DNA of 64,000 nt from Trichomonas vaginalis G3 (Eukaryota; Parabasalia; Trichomonadida; Trichomonadidae): positions 4,340,001-4,404,000 of the forward strand of contig NC_067203.1 in assembly GCF_026262505.1 (NCBI RefSeq), read 5' to 3'. This document shows positions 43,772 through 64,000 of this stretch, one piece after another; within the stretch, counting starts at the first letter, position 1, and the number at the start of each line of letters is the position of its first letter. The position numbers and the translations under genes were made by a program. Below the pieces are notes generated by a model. The model was given only the letters and a program-made list of their open reading frames with translations. It did no database searches and was not told the origin of the DNA.

Positions 43772-43844
43772 TTATATATAATAATAAAAATGTTTTTACC
43801 CGAAAAGTGGCAGAAAAGTGACAAACATGAAAACATATATAATT

Positions 43845-43950: not shown

Positions 43951-43984
43951 CAATTTTCCGAATAAAAACTTCATTTATACTAAA

Positions 43985-47725: not shown

Positions 47726-47915
47726 TCGGAAAATTGTTAGTCTTCTGGTGTGAATTCGGAGGACTCTTCTTCTTCCTCCATTGCTTCTGGGAAGAAGCCT
47801 TCTTCTGGGTCGAAAACATTATATAATGTTTCACTTTTCACAAATTATATATGTTTTCATGTTTGTCACTTTTCTGCCACTTTTCGGGTAAAAACATTTT
47901 TATTATTATATATAA

Positions 47916-48733: not shown

Positions 48734-48849
48734 GACTACTTGTTTTAGGTTTTTTCCATTGTGTCATTTATTTATTTGACGTGGCAGAAAAGTACAGAGA
48801 ATATGAAGATGAACCAATGCCTGCAAATGTTCAGTATATGTACTCGTAA
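48718..48849 (+). CDS. 43-residue single-pass membrane protein (element 2 copy)
   Basis: Same protein as at 42968-42837: a hydrophobic segment from residue 5 to 20 and an acidic tail. The ATG lies within the last codons of the methyltransferase gene. Conservation of this tiny frame in two copies supports it as a gene. Confidence 0.6.
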   Translation: MWFEIGLLVLGFFHCVIYLFDVAEKYREYEDEPMPANVQYMYS

Positions 48850-48872
48850 GAGATATTTTTATCTAATATTAA

Positions 48873-49235
48873 ATGGACGCACAGAACTTAGCGAATGCAC
48901 AGCAACCTGGACAACCAAACCCAGAGAATATTCCAAATGAAGTTAGAATACAAACTGCAATGGCAAACTATGGTCAAGTGCCAACAGATGTACAAATGCA
49001 AACTGCCATGTCAAATGACGCTGCGTTAGGTTTGCCACCATGGTATGCAAATATGAGATGGAAAGAGTTTTATACAAACCCTGAAGTGGGATATAAACAA
49101 CTTTATGCAGATGACGCGAACACAGGAGTTGACCCAGAATATGTTTTCTACCAGAGGAGAAACAGAATGTATGAGCTCCAGTTAAAGAATGCTATGGAAC
49201 TCAACAGGAAACGTAAGAGACTAGGCGGACATTAG
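48873..49235 (+). CDS. Conserved 120-residue element protein (element 2 copy)
   Basis: Same sequence as the product of 42813-42451, with a duplicated QTAM(A/S)N motif and basic C-terminus. ATG is preceded by TTTTTATCTAATATTAA, the A/T leader common to genes of this element. It is followed by the amphipathic-peptide gene after 18 bp. Function unknown. Confidence 0.75.
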   Translation: MDAQNLANAQQPGQPNPENIPNEVRIQTAMANYGQVPTDVQMQTAMSNDAALGLPPWYANMRWKEFYTNPEVGYKQLYADDANTGVDPEYVFYQRRNRMYELQLKNAMELNRKRKRLGGH

Positions 49236-49253
49236 ATTTTTACATATAGTAAA

Positions 49254-49496
49254 ATGGGTTTCTTCAGTAAGATAGGAAACTTCTTTCGAAATGTTGGAAG
49301 AGGTATATGGAATGGAATAAAAACCGTAGGAAGAGGAATTTGGAACGGAGTCAAAAATATTGGTAAAAGAGTAGGTCAGTTTGTTGGTATTATACCTAAA
49401 GACCCTGAACCAGAAGAACAAGCTCCTGTTATACAACAGCCTGAACCTGCACCACAGTCAAGTTGGCAACCAAATCCAACACCTCAACCGTATTAA
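49254..49496 (+). CDS. Basic amphipathic 80-residue protein (intact copy)
   Basis: Residues 1-45 carry repeated VGRGIWNGxKxxG units with regular Arg/Lys and aromatic spacing, fitting an amphipathic or DNA-condensing helix. Residues 50-80 are Pro/Glu/Gln-rich (EPEEQAPVIQQPEPAPQSSW). The element 1 copy differs only at the end by a small change. It may be a virion core or membrane-active minor protein; no homologue can be named from sequence alone. Confidence 0.65.
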   Translation: MGFFSKIGNFFRNVGRGIWNGIKTVGRGIWNGVKNIGKRVGQFVGIIPKDPEPEEQAPVIQQPEPAPQSSWQPNPTPQPY

Positions 49497-49500
49497 AAAA

Positions 49501-50347
49501 TTATATTTTTACCGTTCGATAGTAGTTGTATATGAAACTAAGTTCTAAGTAAAACGCATGGTATAATGGAATTATTCTTTTTCTTCCATCTGTAGTAAAC
49601 CATACTTGAAAGTCTGAAATACTTCCACTTGGTGGTTCGTATAACTTTGTAGGTTTTTCGTAAAAGTCATTTGCCAAGCATAAGAAAGAGTTTTGGGCGC
49701 CAGAAAATGAAGCATGAACAATATAGCATCTGGGTCGAAAATATTTTCATATGTTCCATTAGGGTTTTCGACTTCATAAAAGTCTGGGTGTACTGGATAT
49801 GCTGCAGGCTGATTTAACATCCTCATAAATCTATACCATGCCAAGTTGTTATATTTTGTAGAAATATAAACGTTTTCTCCAAGGTCTTCTATTCTATTGA
49901 TTTTAACAGTTGCATTTTTCCTGTCATAAATATATCGAGATGGTATTCTCCCTCGTCAATGTTATACTGTTTTGCATATTCGATATAGATATCGTTTATT
50001 TTTTCTTGAAAAGCTTGAAGAGTTGTTTCTAAGTTTACAAGCAAACTAACTTGTAAAAGTTTTCCCTGTTCAAATTTCTCATACATACGTTTTTCTTTGT
50101 TATAGTATCGAACTTCAAAACCGACCGTAAATGGGAAACCATGTATGGCTTCTGAAATGAACTTCATTCTACGAAAGCCAATAGCTTTTGTGACAGATGG
50201 GTCTCTTAGCCATCTTAATGGGTAGTCAAAACGATAGCCTTCATGCTTTACGGTCTCTGTCTCAAACTTTTGACCGACATTAGTAAAAAGTTCATCTAAT
50301 GGTTTAGTTGTAGCAACTCTTGAATTTTCTTTTTCTATTGAAAGCAT
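49501..50347 (-). pseudogene. Structural-type protein B, element 2 allele (frameshifted)
   Basis: Minus-strand ATG at 50347 (MLSIEKENSRVATTKPLDEL). The first 50 residues and the last ~75 match the element 1 allele closely, while residues ~60-190 are different (for example FEVRYYNKEKRMYEKFEQGK and YENIFDPDAI). Breaks lie near 49900, 49855 and 49720. A protein with fixed ends and a replaced middle is typical of receptor-binding or tail-fibre type proteins in phages. Confidence 0.65.
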
Positions 50348-50365
50348 ATTTTATCTAGAATAAAA

Positions 50366-51776
50366 ATGTCGAAAGATATTGCTTCCATGAGAGAAATACA
50401 ACACAACCGACAACTCATTATGCAAGCTCTAAATAAGAACACAACAAACTTTTCAAACTATTCTAAGATATCTGAGTCATTGAAAGAAGGAAACTTAAAA
50501 CTGACATTAAACCCAATGACAGATGAGTTTCTATTTCAAGACAAGAAGAACAATACTGTCTGTATAAATCCAACAAAAGGAACTTTAAACGAGAAACCTA
50601 TAAATGAACTTCTTTTGAAAGCAGATGTTGACAACAAAGCTGACAAAGAATATGTAGACGATGCAATAGCAAAAGAAGAAGAAAGAGCTAACAATGCTTA
50701 TGCAACAAAAGAACATACTCATCCTGAACTAGCAGACAAAACATATGTTGACAATAAAATGTCAAGTGAAGTGACAAGAGCTGAAAACGAATATTCTAAA
50801 AAGACTCATACACATTCTATATCTGAAATAACAGACTTAAACGTTAGCCTTGAAAAGAAAGCGGATGAGGAATATGTGGCTAGTGTGTTAGAGAAGAAAG
50901 CGGATAAGGAATATGTGGATGAAAAAGATAAAGAAATTATAGAAAGGGCTGAATGGTATCATGAATGGACATCGGAGACTTTTAAAGTTAAAGCCGATAC
51001 AGGATGGGTTTCAGGATGTTTAGACCTTAAAGCAGATAAAACTTATGTTAACGATGAGTTAGAGAAGAAAGCAAATAAGACTCATACACATACAAGTTTT
51101 ACAACTGTTGCTATAGAAAGTATTGAAGGAACGGTTGAAGAAACTGGTGGGGATGCATTATATTGTAAACCTCCCTTTCCACAAGGTTTAACATCGGATG
51201 ACGACATAACGACGATGAGAAAACATTAGATGTAAAGATGTTTATGTCATGAAGGATGAATATAATATTAAATTCACTGCTCAAGATTTATATGACAAGA
51301 AAGCAGACAAAAAAGAGCTTCAAACATTAAAGACAGAAATACTTCAAACATTATATCCTATAGGCTCTATTTATACGTCAATGAACTCAACAAATCCAGA
51401 AACAGTTCTGGGTTTTGGAACTTGGACTCAAATAGTCGACAGGTTTTTGTTATTGTGCAAACTCTTCAAAGGAAAACAGGTGGAAGTAAAACGATTTCAG
51501 GTGAAAATTTACCTGCACATAGTCACTACATAGATTTAAGTACATCTCAAGCAGGTTGGCATAAGCATAAATTTTTGGGATTGGTCAGCAATGACAAAAG
51601 GTAAAGGATATGATGTTAAAGACGACGTTCAGTTTGCTATAAATTGTTTCTGGGGTAACACTCAGGGAGATGGAAACCATACACATCACGTTTCAGGATA
51701 TACGCAAACAACGGGACAAAGTAAAGAATACATGCCACCTTACATGACAGTTTACGCATGGTATAGAAATGCTTAG
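50366..51776 (+). pseudogene. Phage-like fibre protein, element 2 allele (frameshifted)
   Basis: N-terminal ~150 residues match the element 1 fibre (MSKDIASMREIQHNRQLIMQ). The middle is a different set of coiled-coil KADKEYVD-type repeats (EKKADEEYVASVLEKKADKE) and a unique segment (WYHEWTSETFKVKADTGWVS). The C-terminal Gp10/collar domain matches again (ENLPAHSHYIDLS, GDGNHTH). Frame breaks lie near 51235, 51450 and 51575. The stop overlaps the convergent integrase stop, as in element 1. Confidence 0.75.
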
Positions 51777-53250
51777 TCGTCATTTTCAACTTCTTTAGCA
51801 TATTCGTCAGGAGTTGTCTTATATTTGTTAGGAACTGTCTTTGAAAGTATCCACCTTGAACTTTGACAAGTTTTGAAACGAGGTCTGACAATAGTAGTTT
51901 TATCTTCTGCTTGCAGTCTGTACATTTTGCCATGTTTGCCTAAAACTTCATAATATTCTCTTGTATACTTTCTTCTATTTTTACGAACACGAATGTGAGT
52001 ACCTGTCGAGTTCCCATTGTTGTCATAGTCAATAGTATTTTCATATGGGTCGCGTTTAGGTATTTCTATTTTTACTTTGTCACCTTTCTGAAGTTTGAAG
52101 CCGCATTCTTTCTTGTTTGTCTCTTTTGACTAAATTATTAAATATATAGTCTTTCTCTAAGTCAGGGTTGTTTTTCATTTCTTCGGGGGAGTGGTTTCCC
52201 AAACCTTTTTGTTTACGGCTATTGTAAATATTTAAAACTTGTCTCATCTTTGCCATGGAGAAGTGTCTATATTTGTCGTCATATGACATTTCATTTGCTT
52301 CACCACCTTGTGGTTGGTTTAAGTCTCTTAACATTTTTATACAACCGTCAATGTAGGGTTGTTAGATTCCCGACGATAGGTGTCTTGGAAGATTTGCCTG
52401 GTGTCATCATAGTGTCTTTAAATCAAAAATTTTATTTTGGAGTTAGTTTTATTGATTTTTCAATAAAAAACATTTTCGAAAACAAGAAATAAAACGATAA
52501 AATATTTATTTTTATATAAGGATCTTATATATTTAAATAAATATCATTTTATTTTTTTCATTGGTGTCTGTCAAACCATAATACACTATTCAAAAATTCA
52601 ATGTGTCTTTGCGGTTTCAAAAGACACCTTCAAATTGAACGATAGCACAGACACTATTGAATTTTACCCATTGTATTTAGTTTTTACCCTTTTTATTTTT
52701 AAGAATTAATGACTGAAACAGCCGTTTTGCTTAAAGTTCATTAAGAGAAAAACATTTCTTCTTCTTCAATCTATTGGCGCATTTATTTCTACACGCCAAT
52801 AAGGAAGGAAAAATTATAAGACACCATGGTGTCTTCAAAACGCTAATTTTTGATATTTTTAACAACCCTACGTCAATGACACCAAGAGCAGAATGGTTTT
52901 GGTCGACAATGAAATATTGGTTTACATTTTTTGAACGCAGATAGTTTTTTACATCATTGATTTGAAAGAACTTTCACAGTCAGATGTCAGTTTTTGGATG
53001 GTATTTGTCAACGAATTTTGTCAAAGCAGTTTTCACATCTAAATATTTTTGGACCATAATGGTATGCTTCACAGTATCTTGTGTTTTGACCGACAAATAT
53101 TAACCAGTATGGTGGTCCATCTTCTCTATACCTCGGAATGTTTTCCAAGATATCCATAAACCAAGCATTTGGTGTTGAACTAAAGATTTTTATCATGAGT
53201 GCTTTTCTTGTCGCTTTAGAAACATAGGGGTCCTTGTTTGGATTCGTCAT
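51773..53250 (-). pseudogene. DDE integrase, disrupted by a MITE and frameshifts
   Basis: Minus-strand ATG at 53250. Matches the intact integrase at 38637-39596 but is split by a 517-bp insertion (52354-52870) between the second and third catalytic residues, with small indels near 53010, 52980, 52105 and 51860. It cannot act by itself. An element 1-like integrase could act on its ends in trans (inference). Confidence 0.9.
52354..52870. mobile_element. hAT-like MITE (517 bp) with 8-bp target duplication
   Basis: Flanked by CGTCAATG on both sides (52346-52353 and 52871-52878). Removing the insert and one copy restores the integrase sequence. Ends are perfect 11-bp inverted repeats, TAGGGTTGTTA. 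An 8-bp duplication and a 5' YARNG-type end are typical of the hAT superfamily. It has no coding capacity but contains internal GGTGTCTT/AAGACACC pairs. Confidence 0.85.
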
Positions 53251-53267
53251 TTTTTAACCCATAAGAA

Positions 53268-53673
53268 ATGGGTTTATTTGGCGCATTAGCAGGAGTTGCA
53301 TCCAGATTTTTGCCCGCAGTGGGAACAATAGCCAGCGAGGTGTATTTGGAGTTGGAAGGAAGATTTTGAGTACATTAGGTATACTGAAAGAGAAAGCACA
53401 ACCTATTATACAAACTGTACAGAAAGGTTGGGATGTAGCACGAGATGCAAACAAATCTTATTCCAAATCCTGAAACAAGAGGGAAAAGTTCAAGGATGGA
53501 TGGACAATGTAGGAAGACAAGCAGGAAACTATTATAACAAAGCAAATGACTACTATAACAAGCAGGGACACTATTGGACCAAGGTGAAAGATTCTTTAAC
53601 AGAGGATATTAACCATGCACAACAATGGTAAAACAATAACCAACCTCAACCGCCTCAAACGTGGGGAATGTAA
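53268..53673 (+). pseudogene. Amphipathic Gly-rich pVI/pX-like protein, broken copy
   Basis: Matches the intact 133-residue gene at 38619-38218, but with several small indels (near 53328, 53448, 53560 and 53625). The N-terminal amphipathic stretch (GALAGVASRFLPAVGTIA) is preserved. Divergent from the integrase by 17 bp. Confidence 0.8.
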
Positions 53674-53693
53674 AGTTTTTTTACTGAGATGAA

Positions 53694-53847
53694 ATGAACA
53701 ATACAGCATTGAGACAAATGGGTTCAAGATGGATTTGTCGGCTTCCAGCAGTTACACAACGTGTTTGTCAAGGTCTTCCTATACCTCAGGAAGTTTTAGA
53801 CCGACTTAAAAAAACAACAACAACCAGTTGAAAACAAACCAAACTAA
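53694..53847 (+). pseudogene. 50-residue conserved peptide, frameshifted near its end
   Basis: Same as 38198-38046 except for a few changes and one extra A in the run near 53812, which alters the last ~10 codons. Leader TTACTGAGATGAA is conserved. Confidence 0.55.
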
Positions 53848-53866
53848 ATTTTTTTACTGAGATGAA

Positions 53867-54453
53867 ATGACGCCGAAGAAGTTGAAACGGTAGATTTGAC
53901 ACCACAAACAAAAAGTTCAGAACCATTGTCAAAACCTGTCAAAGAACTTACAGATGAAGAGAAAAATTCAATAATAGAAAGTGCCAGGTCTGGAAATACA
54001 AACCCTAACTACAAAGTCACTTTTCATAGAAATGGAACGGCAAGTATCTCAAAAAAGAAACAGACTCTCACAAATAAAATATTGAAGTCTGAAGGAGCTT
54101 TCGAGACAACAGATGGAAAAGTTTACTTCACTGACCAACAGTTCATTATAGAACATCTCATTGACTTAGAGTCGAAATATTCTAAACTTTACAACAAACA
54201 CAAAAAGTTGAAAGGAAAACAAAAACAAATGGCATATGATATTTATGAAGATGTTGACGACACAACTGTTCCTGCAGGTGAGGTAAAGTCAGAGGAACCG
54301 AAAAGTGACGAAAAACCGATAGAAGAAGAAAAACCAAAAACTGAAGATAAACCAAAACCAAAGTTTAGTTTCCAAACTAAACCAAGTCAACCTTCATTAG
54401 CTGGTATGGGTTGGCGTCAAAGACTTATGGCAGCAGGCGGTTATGTAAAGTAA
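53867..54453 (+). pseudogene. Lys/Glu-rich 194-residue protein, shifted at the start
   Basis: The sequence is the same as the intact product of 38026-37442 from residue 10 onward, but two extra bases just after the ATG at 53867 put the start codon out of frame. Without another start it is probably not translated. The intact remainder shows that the damage is recent. Confidence 0.75.
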
Positions 54454-54593
54454 AGAAAAAAATATTTTTTTATTTTTATTTGAAATGTACGCTGAGTTTG
54501 TTAGTGAACCTCAAGTTGAAGGAAACTTGTTTGTTAGATGAGAAATATGAAATGGCATACCATTTTAAAACAATATATTTTTACATATATTAA
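54454..54593. pseudogene. Scar of the deleted DNA polymerase B gene
   Basis: Where element 1 has ~2.3 kb of polymerase gene, element 2 has ~110 bp. It is a mosaic: a piece of the polymerase C-terminus (ATGTACGCTGAGTTTGT), a ~23-bp piece of its N-terminal region (encoding SEPQVEG), and again the C-terminal end (GATGAGAAATATGAAATGGC). This indicates deletion with template switching. Confidence 0.85.
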
Positions 54594-55454
54594 ATGCTTC
54601 AGGTTGAAAAACAAAGAACAAAAGTAGCAGATACAAAACCGTTAGACTATATCTTTACAAATGCTGGTAGGACAATATCAGATGAAGAAATTTCATCCCG
54701 AATATACAGGTTTGACTATCCAATTCGTTGGCTTCAAAGTCCTTCAGATGCAAAGGCAATAGGATTTAGAAGAGTTTTGTTTTCAAAAAGAACTAACGCA
54801 TTTATGTTCGCAGTATATTTTCATGGGCAGTATAAAGGTTCTGATGGTCTAATAGACAAATTTGACGAAATGAGAATCTTTACAGTTCGTTCAGACGAAA
54901 GTCTTGAGAAAACTCTAAATGACTTTCAAACTCAAATGAACAAATATTATTGGGAATTTCAAGAAAAATACGACTCTTTACTAAATGGAACATACTATCT
55001 GAAACTAGAATATGACAAGATGAACTCAACCGTTTCATTTCAAAAGATTGAAATTAACCCTCCAAGAGATACAGAGTTTTTATATTGGAAAGTAGACAAA
55101 CGTTCTTGGGCACAATTTCTTCGGTTACTAAACCAGAACGAACCATTACCACCAGATGGTCCATTTCAATTTATACTTCCACCAGCAGATTTGACAGTTT
55201 ATAGAAACGTGTTTGACCCTCAAAATGTTATGTGTCATGCAAGTTTCAGTTCAAGCAACAATAGTTTTCTATGTATTGGTAAGGACTTTTATGACTTTGC
55301 TTCTAAATTCTACGAACCACCTAGTAACAGTTTCTCTGACTTTCAAGTTTGGTTCACAACAAATGGTGTGCAACATATTATTCCATTGTACTATGACTTT
55401 TATCTCGAATTGTCTTTCATATATAACTACGGAAAAGTGCTGAAAAAGTATTGA
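54594..55454 (+). CDS. Structural-type protein A (intact, 286 aa)
   Basis: Starts at ATG 54594 (MLQVEKQRTKVADTKPLDYI) after TTTTTACATATATTAA. Conserved blocks are RFDYPIRWLQSPSDAKAIGF near residue 45, a helical EKTLNDFQTQMNKYYWEFQ region near 110-130, FDPQNVMCHASFSSSNNSFL near 210 and FSDFQVWFTTNG near 255. The first and last blocks are shared with protein B. There is no membrane segment or enzyme motif. The length and the paralogy to the fibre-linked protein B suggest a virion surface component, which is inference. Confidence 0.75.
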   Translation: MLQVEKQRTKVADTKPLDYIFTNAGRTISDEEISSRIYRFDYPIRWLQSPSDAKAIGFRRVLFSKRTNAFMFAVYFHGQYKGSDGLIDKFDEMRIFTVRSDESLEKTLNDFQTQMNKYYWEFQEKYDSLLNGTYYLKLEYDKMNSTVSFQKIEINPPRDTEFLYWKVDKRSWAQFLRLLNQNEPLPPDGPFQFILPPADLTVYRNVFDPQNVMCHASFSSSNNSFLCIGKDFYDFASKFYEPPSNSFSDFQVWFTTNGVQHIIPLYYDFYLELSFIYNYGKVLKKY

Positions 55455-55568
55455 ATGTGAAGATATTAGAAAATAACATTTTTTCTAACATCGTAGAAAA
55501 CTCATGAAAACAATTTATTTTTGACACTTTCACAAAAAACATAAAAAAGTGCAGTTAAACGTTAAGGT

Positions 55569-55934
55569 TTACTGAACTGGTTGGATGTCGCCTTCACAGG
55601 TTATGTAGAATGGTTGACCCGAGAAGCGAAGGAGACCCCTGAGAATTTGGTTCATTCTTGGGAAAGGGTTCTCTCTGGTTGGAAGTTGTATCCAAGGACG
55701 CTTTGCAAAGAACTTGAGAAGAGCTTCTTTCTTTGCTTGCTTTATGTCGTCGTAGGCTGTCCCGTCTGGTATTTGAATTGGAATTCCAGTCGAAGTCTCG
55801 AGATTCAAGGCAGCCCTTCCCGTTATCCAACCGCTAACAAGCTTGCCTTTTACATTCTGCCTGAGGAAGTCTTTAACAAGCTCGTTAATTTCAATTAGGT
55901 AAATTGCCTCGTCGGTAGGTTCGACCTCGACCAT
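55569..55934 (-). CDS. 121-residue protein of a divergent pair
   Basis: Minus-strand ATG at 55934 (MVEVEPTDEAIYLIEINELV). The C-terminal half is basic (KQAKKEALLKFFAKRPWIQL). Shortened relatives sit at 30774-30848 and 60887-60813, always facing a Pro-rich gene across a minisatellite. More GC-rich than the rest of the element. No domain recognised. It could be a regulatory or replication-linked protein since it borders a repeat-rich spacer. Confidence 0.6.
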   Translation of the reverse strand: MVEVEPTDEAIYLIEINELVKDFLRQNVKGKLVSGWITGRAALNLETSTGIPIQIPDGTAYDDIKQAKKEALLKFFAKRPWIQLPTRENPFPRMNQILRGLLRFSGQPFYITCEGDIQPVQ

Positions 55935-56252
55935 TGCTACTGTCAGAAAAAGTACTACTACTGTCAGAAAAAGTACTGCTACTGTCAGTAAAAGTACTGC
56001 TACTGTCAGTAAAAGTACTGCTACTGTCAGTAAAAGTACTGCTACTGTCAGTAAAAAGGAAAATTTGAGAGGGTTTTCGACGATAAAGTACTGCTACTGT
56101 CAGTAAAAGTACTGCTACTGTCAGTAAAAGTACTGCTACTGTCAGAAAAAGTACTGCTACTGTCAGTAAAAGTACTGCTACTGTCAGAAAAAGTACTGCT
56201 ACTGTCAGTAAAAGTACTGCTACTGTCAGTAGCAGTACTGCTAGTAGCAGAG
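55935..56252. repeat. 21-bp minisatellite between divergent genes
   Basis: About 14 copies of TACTGCTACTGTCAGTAAAA plus G, with variants ending GTCAGAAAAAG, interrupted near 56055-56085 by a unique core with GGGTTTTCGACG. The layout matches the arrays at 30505-30773 and 60898-61205, but the repeat unit is unrelated. Confidence 0.92.
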
Positions 56253-56291
56253 ATTTTTATCGTTGTGGTCCGACGGTTAAGCCACAAACGA

Positions 56292-56630
56292 ATGTCCGAC
56301 GTCCCACCAACCGAGTCCATTCCCAAACCAGAAGAACCTAAAGCACCAGCCCCTGCACCTCAGTTCCAGCAAGTACCTCCGATTTACTACCAATTTCCAC
56401 CTCAAGGTTACTACCCACCACAAGGCTTCCCGAACTACCCTCCTCTGCCTATGCCTTACTTCCCCAACCCTTGGATGTTCCAGCAAGCTCCACCCCAGCA
56501 ATTCCAATCTCAATCCAAATCGAAGAGAGCCCAAGAGTTCGAAGAAGGTCTGAACCGCTTACGCAAAGAGTATGCCACAGCTCCAATTGAGAGAAAGTTG
56601 TTCCCGGACCAAAAATATAATTTAGGGTAG
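56292..56630 (+). CDS. Pro/Tyr/Gln-rich 112-residue protein of a divergent pair
   Basis: ATG at 56292 (MSDVPPTESIPKPEEPKAPA). The middle is PPIYYQFPPQGYYPPQGFPN-type low-complexity sequence with PPxY-like motifs. The C-terminal ~35 residues form a basic helix (SKSKRAQEFEEGLNRLRKEY). The last codons run into an inverted-repeat site (TTTAGGGTAG), which supplies its stop. PPxY motifs recruit WW-domain ubiquitin ligases and are used by viruses for budding. Here this is only a possibility. Confidence 0.6.
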   Translation: MSDVPPTESIPKPEEPKAPAPAPQFQQVPPIYYQFPPQGYYPPQGFPNYPPLPMPYFPNPWMFQQAPPQQFQSQSKSKRAQEFEEGLNRLRKEYATAPIERKLFPDQKYNLG

Positions 56631-56672
56631 ATGGTTAGATCTCACCTGTTTTTTCACCTGTTTTCTACCCTC
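56621..56672. promoter_or_regulatory. Inverted-repeat site, mixed-word class
   Basis: TTTAGGGTAGATGGTTAGAT then CTCACCTG, TTTTCACCTG and a final CTACCCTC. Outer words pair (GGGTAG/CTACCC) but inner words do not (GGTTAG versus CTCACC), as if two classes had recombined. Confidence 0.7.
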
Positions 56673-56681
56673 TTGAATTTT

Positions 56682-56890
56682 CATGACTTCTTCGTAAATG
56701 TTTTGTCAAGACTTCTTCGTAAATGTTTTGTCAAGACTTCTTCGTAAATGTTTTGTCAAGACTTCTTCGTAAATGTTTTGTCAAGACTTCTTCGTAAATG
56801 TTTTGTCATGACTTCTTCGTAAATGTTTTGTCATGACTTCTTCGTAAATGTTTTGTCAAGACTTCTTCGTAATGAGTGTAAAGGACCCAA
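56682..56890 (+). repeat. 25-bp tandem array (about 7.5 copies), with common exit sequence
   Basis: Same unit as at 19705-20254, including two copies with GTCATGAC instead of GTCAAGAC. It ends with TAATGAGTGTAAAGGACCCA, directly followed by an inverted-repeat site. Confidence 0.9.
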
Positions 56891-56898
56891 AAATAAAG

Positions 56899-56950
56899 TT
56901 TATGTTAGAATGTTAGATCTAACATATTTTCTAACACGTTTTCTAACATG
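56899..56950. promoter_or_regulatory. Inverted-repeat site, 'GTTAGA' class
   Basis: TTTATGTTAGAATGTTAGAT then CTAACATATTTTCTAACACG and TTTTCTAACA. The same architecture as the other sites, but every word is changed in both arms. Confidence 0.8.
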
Positions 56951-56999
56951 GTCTAAAACTCTTGAATTTTCATGAATTTCCTTAAGATAGAAAAAATAA

Positions 57000-57425
57000 A
57001 GTTAGTTTTATTTTGTATTTTTTGTATAAAAGATATGATTTCAGGGATTTTTTTGACGAAGTGTCAATGTTCACTTCGTCAAAAAATAACAGTTATCTAA
57101 TGAAAAAGTTAGTTTTATTTTGTATTTGACGAGAATGTCGGGTAAATGTTTTGTCATGAATTTCCTTAAGATAGAAAAAATAAAACTAACTTTATTTTGT
57201 ATTTTTTTGTATGTAAGACATGATTTCAGGGATTTTTTTGACGAAGTGTCAATGTTCACTTCGTCAAAAAATAACAGTTATCTAATGAAAAAGTTAGTTT
57301 TATTTTTTTATTTTGTATGTAAAGATATGATTTCAGGGATTTTTTTGACGAAGTGTCAATGTTCACTTCGTCAAAAAATAACAGTTATCTAATGAAAAAG
57401 TTAGTTTTATTTTGTATTTGACGAG
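57000..57425. repeat. Three tandem-like copies of a hairpin block
   Basis: Each ~110-180 bp copy has TTTTTTTGACGAAGTG, an 8-nt loop and CACTTCGTCAAAAAAT (hairpins at about 57050-57086, 57234-57271 and 57340-57378), bracketed by AAAGTTAGTTTTATTTTGTA and its complement. A fourth, shortened copy is near 59488-59524. Confidence 0.88.
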
Positions 57426-57439
57426 AATGTCGGGTATAT

Positions 57440-57556
57440 GTTTTGTCAAAACTTCTTCGTAAATGTTTTGTCAAAACTTCTTCGTAAATGTTTTGTCAAA
57501 CATGAACGTAAATGTTTTGTCAAGACTTCTTCGTAATGAGTGTAAAGGACCCAAAA
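57440..57556 (+). repeat. 25-bp tandem array (about 4 copies), third location
   Basis: The same 25-bp unit with variants (GTCAAAACTTC, GTCAAACATGAACG), exiting through TAATGAGTGTAAAGGACCCA into the next inverted-repeat site. Confidence 0.85.
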
Positions 57557-57562
57557 ATAATG

Positions 57563-57613
57563 TTTAGGTGAAGTGGTGCGATCTCACCTGTTTTTTCACC
57601 TCTTTTTTCACAT
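57563..57613. promoter_or_regulatory. Inverted-repeat site, 'GGTGA' class
   Basis: TTTAGGTGAAGTGGTGCGAT, CTCACCTG, TTTTTTCACCTC and TTTTTTCACA. Upstream of the 312-residue KilA-N family gene by ~90 bp. Confidence 0.8.
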
Positions 57614-57698
57614 CTTGAATTTTCATGAATTTTCCCGAAATAAAAAATAAAGTTAGTTTTATTTTTTTTATTTTTTTTATTTTGTATAAAAAATAAAA

Positions 57699-58637
57699 AT
57701 GTCAACAATCGGCACAACAACAATACAAACAACTACAGCACCAAACTCTTTAGTCATGAATCCTACGTCAATGTTGGTAGGGATGAAAAGCTTCATTCCT
57801 TCTTCATATACTTTTGAAACAGAAATCCAGAAGATAAAGCAAGAACTTTTAACATGTAATTTAGACTGTAGTGCGAAAGATGAAACAAATGAACAGTATC
57901 TTTATGAAATGGAGGACATTATTGACCATTTACCCAAATTGCCTGAAATTCAGCAACAAAAACTAACTATTCCTGAATTCGATGAAATAGAAGTCAAAGC
58001 AACTGACTCGGTAGAAATAAAGAAGTTCATACGAAAGGTAAACTATGAGTTTCTAGGATTTCATTGCAACCATAAGGTTATGGACAAAGATTGCGACATG
58101 GTATATAAGAACATCTCTGACATATATAAATCTGAAGAATTTAAGACCTACGACAACTTTGTTTCGTTAGTTGCTGAATGTGTATGGCAGATAAGAGATG
58201 AAGATAGAAGAGGTAAAGTATGGAACAAACAAATAAAACCAGCAACTTTTGAGTTAAAGAAAACCATTGACGCTTTAGTTGTTTTAGCTGGTTTTATTTC
58301 AATGTATAACGCAAAAATGAACCCGCAATGTTCTAAATGTAAAGCAGCAATGAGGAAATATAACTACTCCGTCAAAGAGATAGAACGTATGAGAAACGAC
58401 TATGCAGATTTAAAGAAAGAAGCAGAAAAGCTAGCAGAAGATAAAATGGACATGTTAGAATTTCTGAACAAAAACTATCCAACAGCAGAAGATTTCCTTC
58501 TATCTGACGTCAAGAAGAAGTATAAAGAAACTTTCGGTATCGTTAAAACATTCGATGTACTAAAAGAAGAAATAGAAGCTACGAAACTGTTTAGGATTTC
58601 AAATATACATCGTACAATTCATGTAAAACGCTTGTGA
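57699..58637 (+). CDS. KilA-N cluster protein, 312 aa, with coiled coil
   Basis: ATG at 57699 (MSTIGTTTIQTTTAPNSLVM). Residues ~80-190 are a compact segment (VEIKKFIRKVNYEFLGFHCN, NFVSLVAECVWQIRDEDRRG). A Cys pair (PQCSKCKAAMRKYN) near 215 may bind zinc. A coiled coil and a helical C-terminus (FLNKNYPTAEDFLLSDVKKK) follow. Its first 245 residues are the N-terminal half of the fused element 1 protein. Other than its place in the KilA-N gene cluster and its shared leader sequences, nothing identifies its function. Confidence 0.7.
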   Translation: MSTIGTTTIQTTTAPNSLVMNPTSMLVGMKSFIPSSYTFETEIQKIKQELLTCNLDCSAKDETNEQYLYEMEDIIDHLPKLPEIQQQKLTIPEFDEIEVKATDSVEIKKFIRKVNYEFLGFHCNHKVMDKDCDMVYKNISDIYKSEEFKTYDNFVSLVAECVWQIRDEDRRGKVWNKQIKPATFELKKTIDALVVLAGFISMYNAKMNPQCSKCKAAMRKYNYSVKEIERMRNDYADLKKEAEKLAEDKMDMLEFLNKNYPTAEDFLLSDVKKKYKETFGIVKTFDVLKEEIEATKLFRISNIHRTIHVKRL

Positions 58638-58683
58638 AAAAAGAGGTGAAAAAACAGGTGAGATCGCACCACTTCACCTAAAC
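58634..58683. promoter_or_regulatory. Inverted-repeat site, 'GGTGA' class (reverse orientation)
   Basis: AAGAGGTGAAAAAACAGGTG then AGATCGCACCACTTCACCTA, the reverse complement of the 57563 site. It overlaps the stop of the previous gene and lies ~105 bp before the T5orf172 gene. Confidence 0.8.
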
Positions 58684-58788
58684 TTTATTTTTGCTGAAAA
58701 ATGACCAAATTTCATGAGTTTTCCCGAAATAAAAAATAAAACTAACTTTATTTTTATTTATTTTTTTATTTTGTATGTAAGAACAGAA

Positions 58789-59400
58789 ATGACAAACATT
58801 GAGTTTGAAACAGTTAAAAAGATAGACAATGACACCAAATTGGTTAGAATAGGTGATTTAAACGTAAGATACTCAAAGAAATACAACAAATATTCTTTGT
58901 CAGACATTATATCTCCATCTGGAAAGAAAGCAAAGGACTGGGTTAAAATTGCTTCTACTCAGAAAATTTTGACAAGAAATCCTGAGCTTATGATATCGGT
59001 AAGATTCTATGGAACTGCAGCATATCTTATAGACAAAAGTCTTATACCAATAGTTTTGTTATGGTTAGACCCAGTTGTTGGATATAACTTCATAACATAT
59101 GGTTCATTCGATACGGAACGTTGCAGTGAAGGCTTACTTTACATCGTTCAGAAACCGAAGGACTTCAATACAAAAAGATATAAGATAGGAAGGACATATA
59201 ATATAACTCAAAGATATGACAGTACAGTCAATAGAGTCAAGGTTGTGTTTGCTAATGATATGAGAGCTGCAGAAACAGAACTACTTGAAAAGTTTGAGAA
59301 AATGTATGGTGCTCCCATAAAAGGTAAAGAAACGTTTGAAGTAGATGAGATAGATAAAGCTATAAAATTATTTGACGAAGTTGCTGAAAAATACATGTAA
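58789..59400 (+). CDS. KilA-N + T5orf172 (GIY-YIG-like) protein, 203 aa
   Basis: ATG at 58789 (MTNIEFETVKKIDNDTKLVR). Residues ~20-105 form a KilA-N domain (SPSGKKAKDWVKIASTQKIL, YLIDKSLIPIVLLWLDPVVG). Residues ~115-190 form a T5orf172/MUG113-type domain (GLLYIVQKPKDF, RYKIGRTYNITQRYD, then a conserved Glu in AAETELLEKFEKMYGA), related to GIY-YIG nucleases. Such fusions are typical of phage and large-virus mobile DNA-binding proteins. It has the full C-terminus that the element 1 fusion lacks. Confidence 0.8.
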   Translation: MTNIEFETVKKIDNDTKLVRIGDLNVRYSKKYNKYSLSDIISPSGKKAKDWVKIASTQKILTRNPELMISVRFYGTAAYLIDKSLIPIVLLWLDPVVGYNFITYGSFDTERCSEGLLYIVQKPKDFNTKRYKIGRTYNITQRYDSTVNRVKVVFANDMRAAETELLEKFEKMYGAPIKGKETFEVDEIDKAIKLFDEVAEKYM

Positions 59401-59562
59401 AGCGTTTATTTTTGGTCTTTTGTGAAAGTCAGAAAATAAAGTTAGTGTCATTTTTTTGTATTTTTTTGTATGTAAGATATGATTTCAGGGATTTTTTTGA
59501 CGAAGTGTCAATGTTCACTTCGTGTCATAATGTAAAAATAACGCTTACCATGTAAAACGCTT

Positions 59563-59611
59563 GTGAGAAAACAGGTGAAAAAACAGGTGAGATCGCACCA
59601 CTTCACCTAAA
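59563..59611. promoter_or_regulatory. Inverted-repeat site, 'GGTGA' class
   Basis: GTGAGAAAACAGGTGAAAAA, ACAGGTGAGATCGCACCACT and TCACCTAAAC. The same as 58634 with small changes. Confidence 0.8.
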
Positions 59612-59666
59612 CATTATTTTTGCTGAATTCAGCACAAATTTCATGAGTTTTGTATGTTTTAGACCA

Positions 59667-59717
59667 TGTGAGAAAACAGGTGAAAAAACAGGTGAGATCG
59701 CACCTCTTCACCTAAAC
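59667..59717. promoter_or_regulatory. Inverted-repeat site, 'GGTGA' class
   Basis: GTGAGAAAACAGGTGAAAAA, ACAGGTGAGATCGCACCTCT and TCACCTAAAC. Lies ~280 bp before the intact KilA-N gene. Confidence 0.8.
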
Positions 59718-59996
59718 ATTATTTTTGCTGAAAAATGACCAAAAATCTGAGTAAAATGGCATATGCTTGCTTCCCTCGAAAAACCGAGAGAAGAGATTCC
59801 GTATGAAAACAGTGAAGAACAGCGAGACCGACTTTTATCTGGGTCGCCAAAACTCTATGAAAACAGTGAAATTTCTCTAGACCGACTTTTTTCGGTCTTG
59901 CATAAAACACATGAAAACAGTGAATTTCCTTAAGACAGAAAAAATAAAGTTAGTTTTTTATAAAATATTTTTTTTATCCGGAATATAAAGACAGAT

Positions 59997-60803
59997 ATGT
60001 CAACAACAGAGAACACAACAACAGTTATAGTCCATGAAGCCATAAATGAAGAATACGAGTACATACAGTATAACAAACAGTTACGTCTCATTCGTTCGGT
60101 CAAAGACGATATGTACCAGATGCAAAGTATTTTGAACGCTCTTCGTTCTACAAAGCAAGCATATCATTGGTTTGAAAACCAACAGACAAAAGAACTTTTA
60201 GAAGAATTTCCTCATATGTTTGCTACCCTCGAAAAACCGAGGGTAGAGATTCCGTACGAAAATCGCAAGAATTTGGCTCCTGGTTTGAGAGGATATTATG
60301 TTCATAGACTTTTAGTAAATGCCGTAGCAATGTGGGCTTCACCTCGTTATGCTTGTTATATTTTCATGATGTTAGATGAACTATATAAAGCAGAACGTGA
60401 AGAGATGGAAAACAAGCTTGAAGCAAAAGACAAAAGCATTCAGAAAAGAATACCACGTTCGGTACCAAAAGGAAAGGAAAAGAACTATAAGTATATGATT
60501 TATACTGAAGAGTTGGAGAAAGAAGAAGATAAAGATATGGTTATGTTGCATTTAGTCAGAAGAAACAACAAAAGCTTTTACGACCTTGCTAAGATTTACA
60601 AATCTGACAGAAATTGGTTCTATCGCGAAAACTTACCGATTTCAATGACCCCAAATGAAGATGTGAAACAAATAGTTCAAGATACGTTACCTCAAACACA
60701 CTATGATATGAAAGGTTGTACAATACTTACCTTCAAAGAAGACTTACCGCTACTGAAAGAAAAAATAACAGAGTATTTTGACAACTTCAAACAAGTAGGG
60801 TAG
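59997..60803 (+). CDS. KilA-N domain protein with DUF3627-like C-terminus (intact, 268 aa)
   Basis: ATG at 59997 follows AATATAAAGACAGAT. Residues ~55-130 hold the KilA-N core (FENQQTKELLEEFPHM, GYYVHRLLVNAVAMWASPRY with the conserved G-Y-V-H and W-x-S-P). A short coiled coil follows, and residues ~165-268 (MVMLHLVRRNNKSFYDLAKI, NWFYRENLPISMTPNEDVKQ) resemble the DUF3627 domain found after KilA-N in ascoviruses and other large DNA viruses. It probably binds DNA and may regulate element genes through the nearby palindromic sites (inference). Two broken copies lie in element 1. Confidence 0.8.
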   Translation: MSTTENTTTVIVHEAINEEYEYIQYNKQLRLIRSVKDDMYQMQSILNALRSTKQAYHWFENQQTKELLEEFPHMFATLEKPRVEIPYENRKNLAPGLRGYYVHRLLVNAVAMWASPRYACYIFMMLDELYKAEREEMENKLEAKDKSIQKRIPRSVPKGKEKNYKYMIYTEELEKEEDKDMVMLHLVRRNNKSFYDLAKIYKSDRNWFYRENLPISMTPNEDVKQIVQDTLPQTHYDMKGCTILTFKEDLPLLKEKITEYFDNFKQVG

Positions 60804-60812
60804 ATGAACCAT

Positions 60813-60887
60813 TTATTTTTCAAGCTTGACTTCAGATGGCTCAAGTAGCTCAATTAGGTAAATTGCCTCGTCAAATCCTTCTGGCAT
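60813..60887 (-). CDS. Short acidic peptide of a divergent pair (element 2)
   Basis: A 24-codon frame (MPEGFDEAIYLIELLEPSEV), related to the N-terminus of the 121-residue protein at 55934-55569 and to 30774-30848. Probably a truncated gene. Confidence 0.4.
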   Translation of the reverse strand: MPEGFDEAIYLIELLEPSEVKLEK

Positions 60888-60897
60888 TCCGAGTCCT

Positions 60898-61205
60898 TCC
60901 TTCCAACAGGAAAAAATTTTCCTTCCAACAGGAAGAACTCTTCCTTCCAACAGGAAAAAATTTTCCTTCCAACAGGAAAAATTTTTCCTTCCGACAGGAA
61001 AATTTTTTCCAGTTGTCCGTCCGTAAACCATTCAAATTTTCGAAAATTGAGAACTTTTTGGTCGAACTTCAGAAAAAGTTTTTCCTTCCAACAGGAAAAG
61101 TTTTTCCTTCCGACAGGAAAAAATTTTCCTTCCAACAGGAAAAGTTTTTCCTTCCAACAGGAAAAGTTCTTCCTTCCGACAGGAAAAGTTTTTCCTTCCG
61201 ACAGG
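60898..61205. repeat. ~19-bp minisatellite between divergent small genes (element 2)
   Basis: About 14 copies of CCTTCCAACAGGAAAAAWTT or CCTTCCGACAGGAAAAATTT with an interrupting core containing ATTTTCGAAAATTGAGAAC near 61035-61056. Same array as 30505-30773. Confidence 0.92.
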
Positions 61206-61215
61206 ACACAAACGG

Positions 61216-61293
61216 ATGACTGACGTTCCTCTTCCTGAATGCCTTCCAAAGCCAGAAGAACCGACAGCCCCAGCACCACAACAGACTTACTAA
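61216..61293 (+). CDS. Short Pro/Glu-rich peptide of a divergent pair (element 2)
   Basis: A 25-codon frame MTDVPLPECLPKPEEPTAPA ending QQTY, related to the start of the 56292-56630 gene. The stop differs from the element 1 copy by a small deletion. Probably truncated. Confidence 0.4.
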   Translation: MTDVPLPECLPKPEEPTAPAPQQTY

Positions 61294-61312
61294 GACTAAA
61301 CACTTAGATTTT

Positions 61313-62290
61313 TCAAGCTTGACTTTTTACAATTTGAACTTTGTTTGCGTAGATATGAATTCTGAAAGAAGTATGAGGGTCTTGTATGACTTTGTACTTC
61401 TCCCATAGTTCATGTCTGTCAAACTTACCTGCCATGGACTCTTTCATAAGTTCCATGAAATCGTCTTCGGACAATCCAGGGAAAAGTATAATGTCAGTAA
61501 GTATTCTTTTAACATCCTTACTTAAACTCTTTGCTGTCTGTACACAAATGACAACTGAGATGTTAAAGTGTCTGAGCTTCTTAAGAATTCGACACATATC
61601 TTGTTCTCTATTCTTAAGCAAAGGATGAGAAGCAAAGTCATCTAAGATAAGAAGACATCTATGAGGGTATGTCTTCCAATCGTAAGATTGCAATTTCTTC
61701 GAAATGTATTCTATCTCTTTCTGTTTGTTTCTGAAGTGTTTCTTCTCTAATATTCTCTGCATTTCCTCATTTGGGTCTTTAAACTTAGAATTTATATACT
61801 CATTTATAGCATTATACTTCAAAACTCTTCTTTGGTACTTCTTTATCCAATCTAACAACTCAGAGTCTTTTATACATACTAACTTAGACTTCTTTATAAT
61901 ATCTTTGAACAAATTGACGGTTTGGTCAAATTGACCAGAAGTCGAACAAATGACTACTAACTCATAGAATGGGTTCTTCTCATCTAGTTCTTGTTGTTGT
62001 GCAGCCATTTTAAGATAAGTGAAAGTCTTACCCGACCCAGGTGGTGCAATTAGACCTGTTATACCATTCTGAGCAAATAAGAACTTGTCATGTATAGGCT
62101 TTATCTGAGCATTTTCTAACTTCCTCTTGTTCTTGTTTAAAACATTCTCAAATTTTTTGTCAATGTCAGCAAACTTTTTTTCTAACATATTTTTAGAAAA
62201 ATTAAAATTTTTATCTTTTAGAAAATGTCTAGCGATTTCGCTATCTATATTCGAGACAAGCTTTTCGACAGCAAAACATCTGTCGACCAT
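61313..62290 (-). CDS. A32/FtsK-like genome-packaging ATPase (intact, 325 aa)
   Basis: Minus-strand ATG at 62290. A basic helical N-terminal ~85 residues, then Walker A in LIAPPGSGKTFTYLKM at ~95, an LVVICSTSGQ strand, Walker B CLLILDDFASH at ~215, and the sensor-type strand ISVVICVQTAKSL near 250, the A32-like order of the HerA/FtsK superfamily. It would translocate element DNA into capsids. The first 22 codons overlap the divergent gene at 62225. A second ATG near 62190 would avoid the overlap. Short spacing to the downstream minisatellite module. Confidence 0.9.
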   Translation of the reverse strand: MVDRCFAVEKLVSNIDSEIARHFLKDKNFNFSKNMLEKKFADIDKKFENVLNKNKRKLENAQIKPIHDKFLFAQNGITGLIAPPGSGKTFTYLKMAAQQQELDEKNPFYELVVICSTSGQFDQTVNLFKDIIKKSKLVCIKDSELLDWIKKYQRRVLKYNAINEYINSKFKDPNEEMQRILEKKHFRNKQKEIEYISKKLQSYDWKTYPHRCLLILDDFASHPLLKNREQDMCRILKKLRHFNISVVICVQTAKSLSKDVKRILTDIILFPGLSEDDFMELMKESMAGKFDRHELWEKYKVIQDPHTSFRIHIYANKVQIVKSQA

Positions 62291-62675
62291 AAAATCTTAC
62301 ATAGTGTAAACAAGAAAGGTGAATTTGTTCTAAAGTTCTGTTTCTGGGAATATGACAAGAACCATAAAACATTAAGCAGAGCAGTCTTAAAATTTGTCAA
62401 TGACAGACTTGTTGACAGAGATGACACCGATTGGAAAGATGAAGTCCAACAAAAGTTCTTAGAATGCAAGAAGACACATGCGCTGTTCTTGAAGATGAAA
62501 TAGAAAACAGAATAGATGAGCTATTAAAGGACAAAGAACTTTTACATAAATATAGTTGCGCCAAATTTGACATAACTCCACCAGAAAAGAAGAAGAAAGA
62601 AAAAAAGAAAGAAAGTAGAAGAAGAGAAGAAAAGAACCTGAACCAGTTCCAGAGAAAAAGAAATTTGACATGTAA
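62225..62675 (+). pseudogene. Small Lys-rich element gene, frameshifted copy
   Basis: ATG at 62225 (MSSDFAIYIRDKLFDSKTSV). Reads through FWEYDKNHKTLSRAVLKFVN to a lost base in an A-run near 62468, then in the next frame to a Lys/Pro-rich tail and TAA at 62673. A further indel lies near 62620. The element 1 copy is broken elsewhere. Function unknown. It overlaps the ATPase start on the other strand. Confidence 0.6.
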
Positions 62676-62691
62676 AAATAAAATTTTATTT

Positions 62692-63111
62692 TTAGAAATT
62701 TCTGGGTCAATGTCAATGTTCTCTTCCTCTTTAGGAGCAAACACTGGCTTAGACTCTAAAATCTTTTTACCCAATTTACCTTGAACTTCAACTATCTTAG
62801 ACTCATAATATTCATAGTCGTCTGCTTTCTTTGGTTCATAAGGTATAACAAGTTTGTATGCTTTGCCTTCTTTAAGGTTTGAAAAACCTTCTGTCAAAAC
62901 TTTCTTTGACTGCTAACAAACCTTCTATGTCTAAGTCTTCAAATTTCGCACCATTTTTAGTCACAATAGCAAACTTAACTGGTTCGATGTTCCAAACTTT
63001 GCTGAATGAAGACTTTTCAAAATGGTAGAAGTAAACATTCAAATATGTGAATGGGTCTAGTTCTTCTTTAAGTCCTGACATGTACTTGTTTACTGAGATG
63101 AATTTTGCCAT
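62692..63111 (-). pseudogene. Conserved ~138-codon element gene, element 2 copy
   Basis: Minus-strand ATG at 63111 (MAKFISVNKYMSGLKEELDP), with a frameshift near 62890 and loss of the stop near 62694. About 80% identical by eye to the element 1 copy in the N-terminal half and nearly identical in the C-terminal half, an unequal divergence that hints at recombination within the gene. Confidence 0.55.
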
Positions 63112-63147
63112 CTTTTCTATCGGATAAAAAAATATTTTTTTTAAAAT

Positions 63148-64000
63148 TTACTCATAAAAATTTTTCTTTGTATATACACCATTCTGTACGTCTAAAAGAC
63201 TTTTGACATTTGCCAAGAATGTTCGTTTAGACGCTGTCATATAACCATATTCTTGACAATATTGTTTATACGAATCGTACAATGACCTTTCATCTAAACA
63301 CTCAAAGTCAGTTTCATCTATGAACAGTTCATATACACTCTTGTTTGCTTCTAACAATGTTTGTCTCTCTTCGGTATGTGAATTTGTCTTGGATTGAACT
63401 TTGAAATATCTAATGTCATAAAATATGAGAACAAGTGGTTAGTAAAAGTCAGATGTCAAAGTTTCTGCTAAGTCGTCAAAATATTCTGTATCTTGCATAT
63501 GAGCTTCTGACGTTCTGACAACTACATATCTTCTGTCAGAACTTTCTTAACTTCATCGGAACAGAATTGTTTGAAACCATAATGAAGTTTTGCAACATTT
63601 TCACAAACTCTTTGGTCTTTATATTTTCTTTCAACAACTCCAACTTTGTCTGTTATAAGACTCTTCAAAGCATCTGAGTTCAAAACTTTTGTTGTATCTA
63701 TACTTTGAAGTTCATTGCAAACTATAAGTTTCATATTCTCTATTGAGGAGTTAAACTTGCCACAGATGTTTTCTAAGTTTGTCATATTCGGATTCGAATA
63801 GCCTTCTAACAGTTTGCACAAAATATCTGTAAAGAATGTGTTCTTACCAGTTCCTTGTTTTCCAATTATAATGAGAGCAGTTTCATTTTTAGCACTTGGA
63901 TGTTGTAAGATGTTTGCAAACCAACATAAGATATACTCATAGACTCTTTCGTTTCCATTGCATATAATTTCTTTGACATGGTCTAACCAAGCTTCTATAA
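63148..64000 (-). pseudogene. SF3 (D5-like) helicase, partial at window edge, frameshifted
   Basis: The same gene as 27330-28555, read on the minus strand and cut by the window end. The Walker A region (GKQGTGKN) lies at about 63870-63847 and the frame is open from there to the edge. Breaks occur near 63540 (after VCENVAKLHYGF), near 63440 and near 63375. The C-terminal helical part (ETDFECLDERSLYDSYKQYC) is preserved. Confidence 0.75.

What the first reader, a model, noticed from the sequence alone, without database searches (positions are those of the whole stretch)
56621..59717. Co-varying palindromic sites around KilA-N genes: a possible set of matched operators
Nine sites (31787, 33913, 34216, 56621, 56899, 57563, 58634, 59563, 59667) share one architecture: TTTA, word, spacer, word, (A/C)GATCT, mirrored words separated by TTTT-rich spacers. 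The word itself changes between sites (GGTAGA/GGTTAG, GTTAGA, GGTGA) and changes in both arms together. One site (56621) is a hybrid. Sites flank genes of the KilA-N family, whose domains bind DNA. Each regulator may have its own word, so the region could be a set of insulated switches that evolves by duplication and word change.
Basis: partly seen in the sequence, partly recalled or inferred. Interest (0 to 1): 0.75.

Follow-up and report, generated by a model that had tools for sequence, protein, structure and literature searches.

The report
Self-matched DNA words around DUF3839 genes
Inside virus-like Maverick elements of the parasite Trichomonas vaginalis, an unstudied gene (DUF3839) sits between mirrored arrays of hairpin-like DNA sites, and a stretch of eight amino acids near the end of its protein comes in three types that match the three 'words' of the sites, which suggests a protein that recognises its own DNA.

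Summary
All nine sites are real. They belong to a family with thousands of matches in the genome, which is Trichomonas vaginalis; the window holds one Maverick/Polinton copy and part of a second. The arms co-vary (central words agree in 84 of 98 distinct sites; shuffles average 33). The KilA-N link is wrong: KilA-N sequence does not track word class (p=0.56). The gene that does is DUF3839, which lies between inward-facing sites in all 18 fetched 9.9-kb loci that carry it (loci chosen for their sites). Its body is about 90% identical and carries little class signal, but residues 300-307 come in three types (A ISNIHRTI, B VSRIHNVY, C VMNHRNIY). Tail type matched the word of the adjoining 3' site in 98 of 100 listed genome matches, and the innermost 5' site, about 1 kb away, in 16 of 22 loci (shuffle 7.5, p=0.00035). 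GATC, at the centre of 188 of 203 sites, is almost absent elsewhere in these Mavericks. Best reading: DUF3839 binds the arrays around its own gene, its tail helping to read the word, in a Foldback-like unit living in Mavericks. Binding is inferred; the purpose is open; a linked cassette with concerted evolution is the main rival.

The parts
31777..31837 (+). composite palindromic site, word class B, centre GATTC
33903..33962 (-). composite palindromic site, class B; last right-hand word A-like, one base out of register
34218..34277 (-). composite palindromic site, class B, sharing a base with the stop codon of the DUF7777-family ORF
56611..56670 (+). hybrid site (class string BB|AAB); the stop codon of ORF 56265-56630 lies inside it
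56889..56948 (+). site, class C
57553..57612 (+). site, class A; innermost 5' site of the DUF3839 gene
57699..58637 (+). DUF3839 gene (PF12943, 312 aa), tail type A
   Evidence: E 1e-154
58596..58619 (+). codons 300-307 of DUF3839 (ISNIHRTI): the patch whose type matches the site word
58633..58692 (-). site, class A; innermost 3' site, inner end overlapping the DUF3839 stop codon
59562..59621 (-). site, class A, preceded by what reads as a remnant of a DUF3839 3' end
   Evidence: sequence
59667..59726 (-). site, class A
32567..33817 (-). DUF3839 fused in frame to a T5orf172 (GIY-YIG) domain, own tail lost
58714..59400 (+). T5orf172-domain gene, neighbour
59997..60803 (+). KilA-N gene, neighbour; does not track word class
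19494..44035 (.). Maverick element A, between inward-facing terminal repeats GGTAGTGGGGCTTCC...
   Evidence: integrase, A32, D5-like and KilA-N genes
47652..64000 (.). Maverick element B, left end at 47652, runs off the window

Best explanation
The sites are cognate DNA-binding sites of the DUF3839 protein, in Foldback-like inverted arrays on both sides of its own gene inside Mavericks. Shown by sequence: the inward-facing arrays, three word classes, three discrete tail types in an otherwise shared protein, and tail-word agreement on both sides of the gene. Inferred: the protein binds the sites as an oligomer, conserved parts reading the constant frame and the GATC centre and residues 300-307 helping to read the word; binding both arrays pairs the two ends. 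What the paired ends are for is the weakest step: I think a DNA transaction of the unit itself (movement or amplification of site units and of the gene between Maverick positions, about 0.4) more likely than autoregulation or immunity (about 0.3) or replication/segregation (about 0.1).
For: All 18 DUF3839 copies in the 20 loci (chosen because they held sites) have inward-facing sites on both sides. Tail type equals first-word class in 98 of 100 listed matches (784 in all) and in 64 of 66 distinct sequences. In a C-tail search 95 of the 100 listed (356 in all) have a C central word, counted by reading the list; 4 of the 5 others lie within 1 kb of a match with a C central word. All 121 proteins examined carry one of the three tails or a near variant of one, with no intermediates; outside residues 300-307 no column tells more than 0.39 bits about tail type, and residue 299 only 0.16 (the type was defined from the patch, so the high values inside it are by construction). 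Along the gene, 3'-site class is associated only with the last 150 aligned bases. The innermost 5' site agrees with the tail in 16 of 22 (shuffle 7.5, p=0.00035). In 7 of 100 the spacer between tail and word is of B type while tail and word are both A, against 2 tail-word mismatches. Type B tails differ at synonymous codon positions (my reading of the strings). Arrays without the gene exist; a site unit is present (L018 class B, L016 class C) or absent (L010, its near-copy L011, L013) at the same DUF7777 3' end, bounded by AAAAAT.
Against: No binding datum. The structure prediction was uninformative (mean pLDDT 40.7), and no known DNA-binding or catalytic family was found. The tail and the 3' site are only some tens of bases apart and the tail block is non-homologous between types, so recombination there may simply be rare. 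Sites within a locus are homogenised, which could carry the match to the 5' side. Weak class signal does exist in the gene body (several columns exceed all 200 shuffles, best 0.39 bits at residue 183; one early window p=0.02 for the 5' class). Outer sites and 5' sites mismatch more often (5' ranks 1-3: 17/23, 15/20, 8/14; 3' ranks 1-3: 22/23, 19/22, 15/18); in L013 a B tail adjoins a CC|BBB hybrid. A looser B-type pattern gave a B central word in only 67 of 100 listed, A in 32, C in 1 (407 in all); it also catches solo ends that are not gene ends (one is the end after T5orf172 in L022), so it is unclear. No clean empty site of a whole DUF3839 unit was found.
Confidence: 0.55

Rival explanations
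1. Linked cassette with concerted evolution: the 24-base variable block at the gene's end and the 3' site are one DNA block that recombines as a unit, and gene conversion spreads the word to the other sites of the locus. The protein does not read the word.
For: The tail block is non-homologous between types and only a short shared stretch (CATGTAAAACGCTT and a few bases) separates it from the spacer and site; arrays are visibly homogenised; the 3' side agrees better than the 5' side; C-tail and looser B-tail searches show some mixed words.
Against: Recombination reaches to the edge of the patch (residue 299 nearly unassociated) and spacers between tail and word are of another type in 7 of 100 without breaking the match. 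The types differ in a run of eight residues of an otherwise about 90% identical protein, with synonymous differences inside type B.
Confidence: 0.25
2. Operators: DUF3839 is an autorepressor or immunity repressor; word classes are immunity types, as with mycobacteriophage stoperators.
For: Sites are intergenic, many begin or end at stop codons and lie upstream of the DUF3839 and T5orf172 starts; repressor-site matching of this kind exists in Cluster A phages (PMC6550527, passages).
Against: Sites occur in both orientations, in mirrored arrays around one gene; arrays near an element end mix classes within one element (L012) and one class (GGGTATATC) lies in arrays with no DUF3839 in the stretches fetched.
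Confidence: 0.25
3. The sites act as RNA or single-stranded DNA hairpins, such as 3'-end signals of Maverick transcripts.
For: One class B and one class C site fold well as single strands (z -4.1 and -4.8, DNA parameters), one class A site less so (z -2.3); sites often abut stop codons.
Against: The hybrid site folds no better than shuffles (z -0.98); of the A32, KilA-N, rve and Gp10C gene ends listed few have a site; tandem and inverted arrays and the tail-word match are not explained.
Confidence: 0.07
4. Operators of the neighbouring KilA-N proteins.
For: KilA-N is a usual neighbour.
Against: KilA-N sequence does not track class (16 loci, within 0.883, between 0.886, p=0.56); the sites surround DUF3839.
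Confidence: 0.03

Closest known systems
Foldback-like DNA transposons (FB, Galileo)
   Same: Long inverted ends made of tandem repeats that hold many binding sites, gene inside, gene-less derivatives (general features recalled). For Galileo multiple transposase THAP sites in the tandem repeats of the long ends are reported (PMC3688188, abstract).
   Different: No recognised transposase domain in DUF3839; units sit inside Mavericks; site type is matched to a patch near the protein's end; no target-site duplication established.
Mycobacteriophage Cluster A stoperators and immunity repressor
   Same: A set of repressor sites in each genome, with site motif and repressor differing together between phages (PMC6550527, passages).
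   Different: Stoperators there are asymmetric with one predominant orientation; here composite palindromes in mirrored arrays around the gene itself, in a eukaryotic element; no repression shown.
Maverick/Polinton elements of T. vaginalis
   Same: The window's elements have inverted ends, rve integrase, A32-type ATPase; 4,808 Mavericks are listed in PMC7845603 (passages).
   Different: The site arrays and the DUF3839 match were not described in the passages I read.
KilA-N / T5orf172 (GIY-YIG) viral proteins
   Same: Neighbours; DUF3839 is fused to T5orf172 in one copy of the window.
   Different: They do not track the word.

Membership tests
Foldback-like transposon | long inverted ends of internal tandem repeats | tested here: met
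   inward arrays of repeated site units, spacing mostly about 100-230 bp, e.g. L010, L026, L028; inverted arms of 280-424 nt at 99-100% in L033 and of 284-422 nt at 99% in L030
Foldback-like transposon | transposase encoded inside | tested here: inconclusive
   DUF3839 inside; no match to a known transposase in Pfam, NCBIfam or PHROGs; PDB matches only at E 0.3 or worse; structure model unusable
Foldback-like transposon | target-site duplication and empty sites | tested here: inconclusive
   one site-unit presence/absence bounded by AAAAAT; no whole-unit empty site; comparison at the Maverick end not clean
Foldback-like transposon | gene-less derivatives with the same ends | tested here: met
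   L012, L014, L029-L033, L039-L041: no DUF3839 in the stretches fetched
Phage-type repressor/stoperator system | sites match the repressor of the same element | tested here: inconclusive
   innermost sites mostly match the tail, outer ones less often; arrays near an end can mix classes (L012)
Phage-type repressor/stoperator system | one predominant orientation to transcription | tested here: not met
   mirrored arrays on both sides of DUF3839
Phage-type repressor/stoperator system | binding and silencing | not testable with these tools
   needs bench data
KilA-N operators | word class tracks the KilA-N allele | tested here: not met
   16 loci, p=0.56
Maverick/Polinton (host element) | terminal inverted repeats, integrase, packaging ATPase | tested here: met
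Maverick/Polinton (host element) | protein-primed DNA polymerase B | not tested
   not searched for

The most novel reading that the evidence does not exclude
Thousands of DUF3839 units in one eukaryotic genome fall into at least three mutually exclusive self-recognition types, each set by an interchangeable eight-residue cassette near the C-terminus that reads a five-to-six-base word in mirrored site arrays, so that elements of one type act only on their own kind (an incompatibility or immunity grouping) and change type by swapping tail and word together; the central GATC is the common handle and has been purged from the rest of the element.
Probability: 0.3. Interest if true: 0.82.

Novelty: new variant of a known kind. 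Interest (0 to 1): 0.62.

Why it matters
Mavericks make up a large part of the T. vaginalis genome (about 73 Mb in PMC7845603, passages), and DUF3839 is listed as of unknown function. If the tail reads the word, this is a natural, many-copy data set of protein-DNA specificity change confined to eight residues, directly testable with a three-by-three binding matrix of natural proteins and natural sites, and it would give DUF3839 a function and Mavericks a self/non-self rule.

Tried and rejected
KilA-N as the matched regulator: rejected. Hybrid breakpoints fixed at the GATC centre (a cut-and-rejoin idea): not supported; class switches are as frequent in the T-rich spacers (2, 12, 16, 15 of 75 at the four junctions). 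Fold of DUF3839: no usable model, so no fold search was run. Solved structures by profile: 8 weak matches, 7 of them ribosomal L37, best E 0.3. Clean empty site at the Maverick end: repeat-rich, not resolvable. Papers: no held paper has both 'Trichomonas vaginalis' and 'DUF3839'; the 6 with Maverick and palindrom and the 2 with KilA-N did not show this system in the listings, nor did the passages I read of PMC12695648, PMC7861443, PMC10120064 and PMC7845603; most subscription papers and all bioRxiv preprints are missing from the library. Reading tail and word together from gapped patterns: stopped by a tool rule.
Full report
Where it is. The window is G000:C1:4340001-4404000 of a 180.9-Mb genome in 86 contigs. 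The best protein matches to DUF3839 are Trichomonas vaginalis G3 proteins, and the length of C1 (27,726,287) equals a contig length listed for several of them. Bases 19494-44035 lie between inverted copies of one terminal repeat, another copy of which starts at 47652; genes inside include an rve integrase, A32-type ATPases, a D5-like fragment and KilA-N. These are Maverick/Polinton elements: one copy with both ends and part of a second. The two groups of sites in the finding lie at corresponding places of the two, between the DUF7777 and KilA-N genes.

The observation. All nine sites are present. Genome-wide, 26-base patterns for the classes A (GGTGA), B (GGGTAGA/GGTTAGA) and C (TGTTAGA) have 7779, 6586 and 3603 matches with up to three mismatches, and none when reversed. 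A profile of 15 copies found sites in all 20 fetched 9.9-kb loci (the loci were chosen because they held sites). Of 203 parsed sites, 188 have GATC at the centre. Among 102 distinct arms the word class agrees between W1 and W2 in 98 of 100, W2 and W2' in 84 of 98, and W1 and W1' in 60 of 77, against 34.0, 33.0 and 26.3 in shuffles. Hybrids like 56621 are a true minority: class switches fall at the four junctions in 2, 12, 16 and 15 of 75 distinct sites.

What the sites surround. In one search, 18 of the 20 loci hold a DUF3839 gene, and in all 18 it lies between sites that face inward, one to five on each side. A usual order is DUF7777, sites, DUF3839, sites, T5orf172, KilA-N, A32; the T5orf172 gene can stand on either side (L013, L016, L024). 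Arrays grow as repeated site units, spaced mostly about 100-230 bp. Arrays without DUF3839 in the stretch fetched occur near Maverick ends (L012, L014, L031, L032, L034, L039-L041) and as nested palindromes in which word variants are mirrored (L030, L033). A fourth, GATC-less class (GGGTATATC) fills some arrays near ends.

The match. KilA-N, T5orf172, DUF7777 and A32 sequences do not follow word class. DUF3839 as a whole does not either (p=0.16), but the last 150 aligned bases do (3' class: identity 0.896 within, 0.807 between; p=0.003, the smallest value that 300 shuffles allow; the 5' class gives 0.881 and 0.841, p=0.003), while the earlier windows show nothing for the 3' class and one of them (bases 150-300) p=0.02 for the 5' class. 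The reason is a patch of eight residues, 300-307, before a constant HVKRL end: A ISNIHRTI, B VSRIHNVY, C VMNHRNIY (window numbering). Among 121 proteins my pattern typed 27 A, 46 B and 44 C; the other 4 are single-residue variants of C (three) and B (one) by reading the printed tails. Outside the patch no column carries more than 0.39 bits about type, though several exceed all 200 shuffles; inside it 0.62-1.55, by construction, since the patch defined the type. In the genome, a pattern spanning gene end and site has 784 matches; of the 100 listed, all on C1, tail type equals first-word class in 98 (62 A, 16 B, 20 C; one A tail with B word, one B tail with A word). A C-tail pattern has 356 matches; of 100 listed, 95 have a C central word, counted by reading. 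A looser B pattern gave 67 B, 32 A and 1 C of 100 listed (407 in all); it also catches ends not attached to a gene, so I do not count it for the match, nor hide it. On the far side of the gene, the innermost 5' site agrees with the tail in 16 of 22 loci, shuffle mean 7.5, p=0.00035. Agreement falls outward on the 5' side (17/23, 15/20, 8/14) more than on the 3' side (22/23, 19/22, 15/18).

Selection or linkage. Close linkage could hold tail and 3' word together, because the tail block is not homologous between types. Three things speak for selection: residue 299, next to the patch, is almost free of type (0.16 bits); in 7 of 100 matches the short spacer between tail and word is of B type while both tail and word are A; and type B tails vary at synonymous positions (strings, my reading). 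The 5' match, across a gene body with little class structure, needs either selection or gene conversion among sites of a locus. I cannot exclude the second.

Function. Mirrored arrays of sites around one gene, gene-less copies of the same arrays, and a site unit present or absent at one place bounded by AAAAAT (L018 with class B and L016 with class C against L010, its near-copy L011, and L013) look most like a Foldback-type unit; for Galileo, a transposase site was footprinted in the long ends and further sites were identified in their tandem repeats (PMC3688188, abstract). But no transposase domain was found, the fold prediction failed, and no whole-unit empty site was seen. A repressor with stoperator-like sites is the main functional rival (PMC6550527, passages). 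I put protein-site matching at about 0.55 and leave the purpose open.

GATC. Outside the sites, GATC occurs 0 times in Maverick A (78.7 expected from base composition), once in Maverick B (50.1), 13 times in 18 loci (533), but 55 times in 19.5 kb of host DNA (55.5 expected). In 210 kb of Maverick-rich DNA there are 14 against 256.6 by a second-order expectation, and none in 24,951 bases of DUF3839 copies, overlapping fetches included. GGCC is also rare (11 against 83.2), as are ATCA/TGAT, so avoidance is not only about the sites. That sites keep GATC where the element otherwise lacks it suggests that the centre is needed.

Noticed in passing
window 19494-44035 and 47652-64000; L009-L011, L013, L015-L028: Mavericks almost lack GATC outside the sites (14 against 256.6 expected in 210 kb) and are poor in GGCC (11 against 83.2), ATCA/TGAT and some other words, as if under restriction-like pressure; host flank is normal for GATC.
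   Followed up: partly
L030, L033: Onion-like inverted arrays in which word variants recur at mirrored places, with inverted arms 99-100% complementary over several hundred bases.
   Followed up: partly
L029 1041-1382, L033 981-1179: A small core with inverted ends GGAGGATTTCAT...ATGAAATCCTCC between the innermost sites, like a MITE.
   Followed up: no
L039-L041; C1 1196507-1989952 matches: Fourth word class, GGGTATATC, without GATC, in arrays near Maverick ends with no DUF3839 in the stretches fetched.
   Followed up: partly
window 32567-33817: DUF3839 fused in frame to a T5orf172 (GIY-YIG) domain by loss of the DUF3839 tail and of the site between them.
   Followed up: partly
proteins P0010, P0022, P0024 and others: Some DUF3839 proteins are named 'organellar and viral DNA polymerase type B' by a source; nothing found here supports that name.
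   Followed up: no
L010 against L011: Two 9.8-kb stretches 20 kb apart on C1 are 99.46% identical in opposite orientation.
   Followed up: no
window 19701-20250; L029: Long runs of a 25-bp repeat (ACTTCTTCGTAAATGTTTTGTCAAG and kin) form spacers of arrays and part of Maverick ends.
   Followed up: no
window 19494, 44035, 47652; L012, L014, L031, L032, L034: All eight Maverick terminal repeats matched are preceded by a run of A on the outer side.
   Followed up: no
L010 3450-4110: A further reading frame that looks KilA-N-like by eye (not tested), holding an insert (GCATTTTGTGAAGAATATA...) that also occurs about 500 bases upstream.
   Followed up: no
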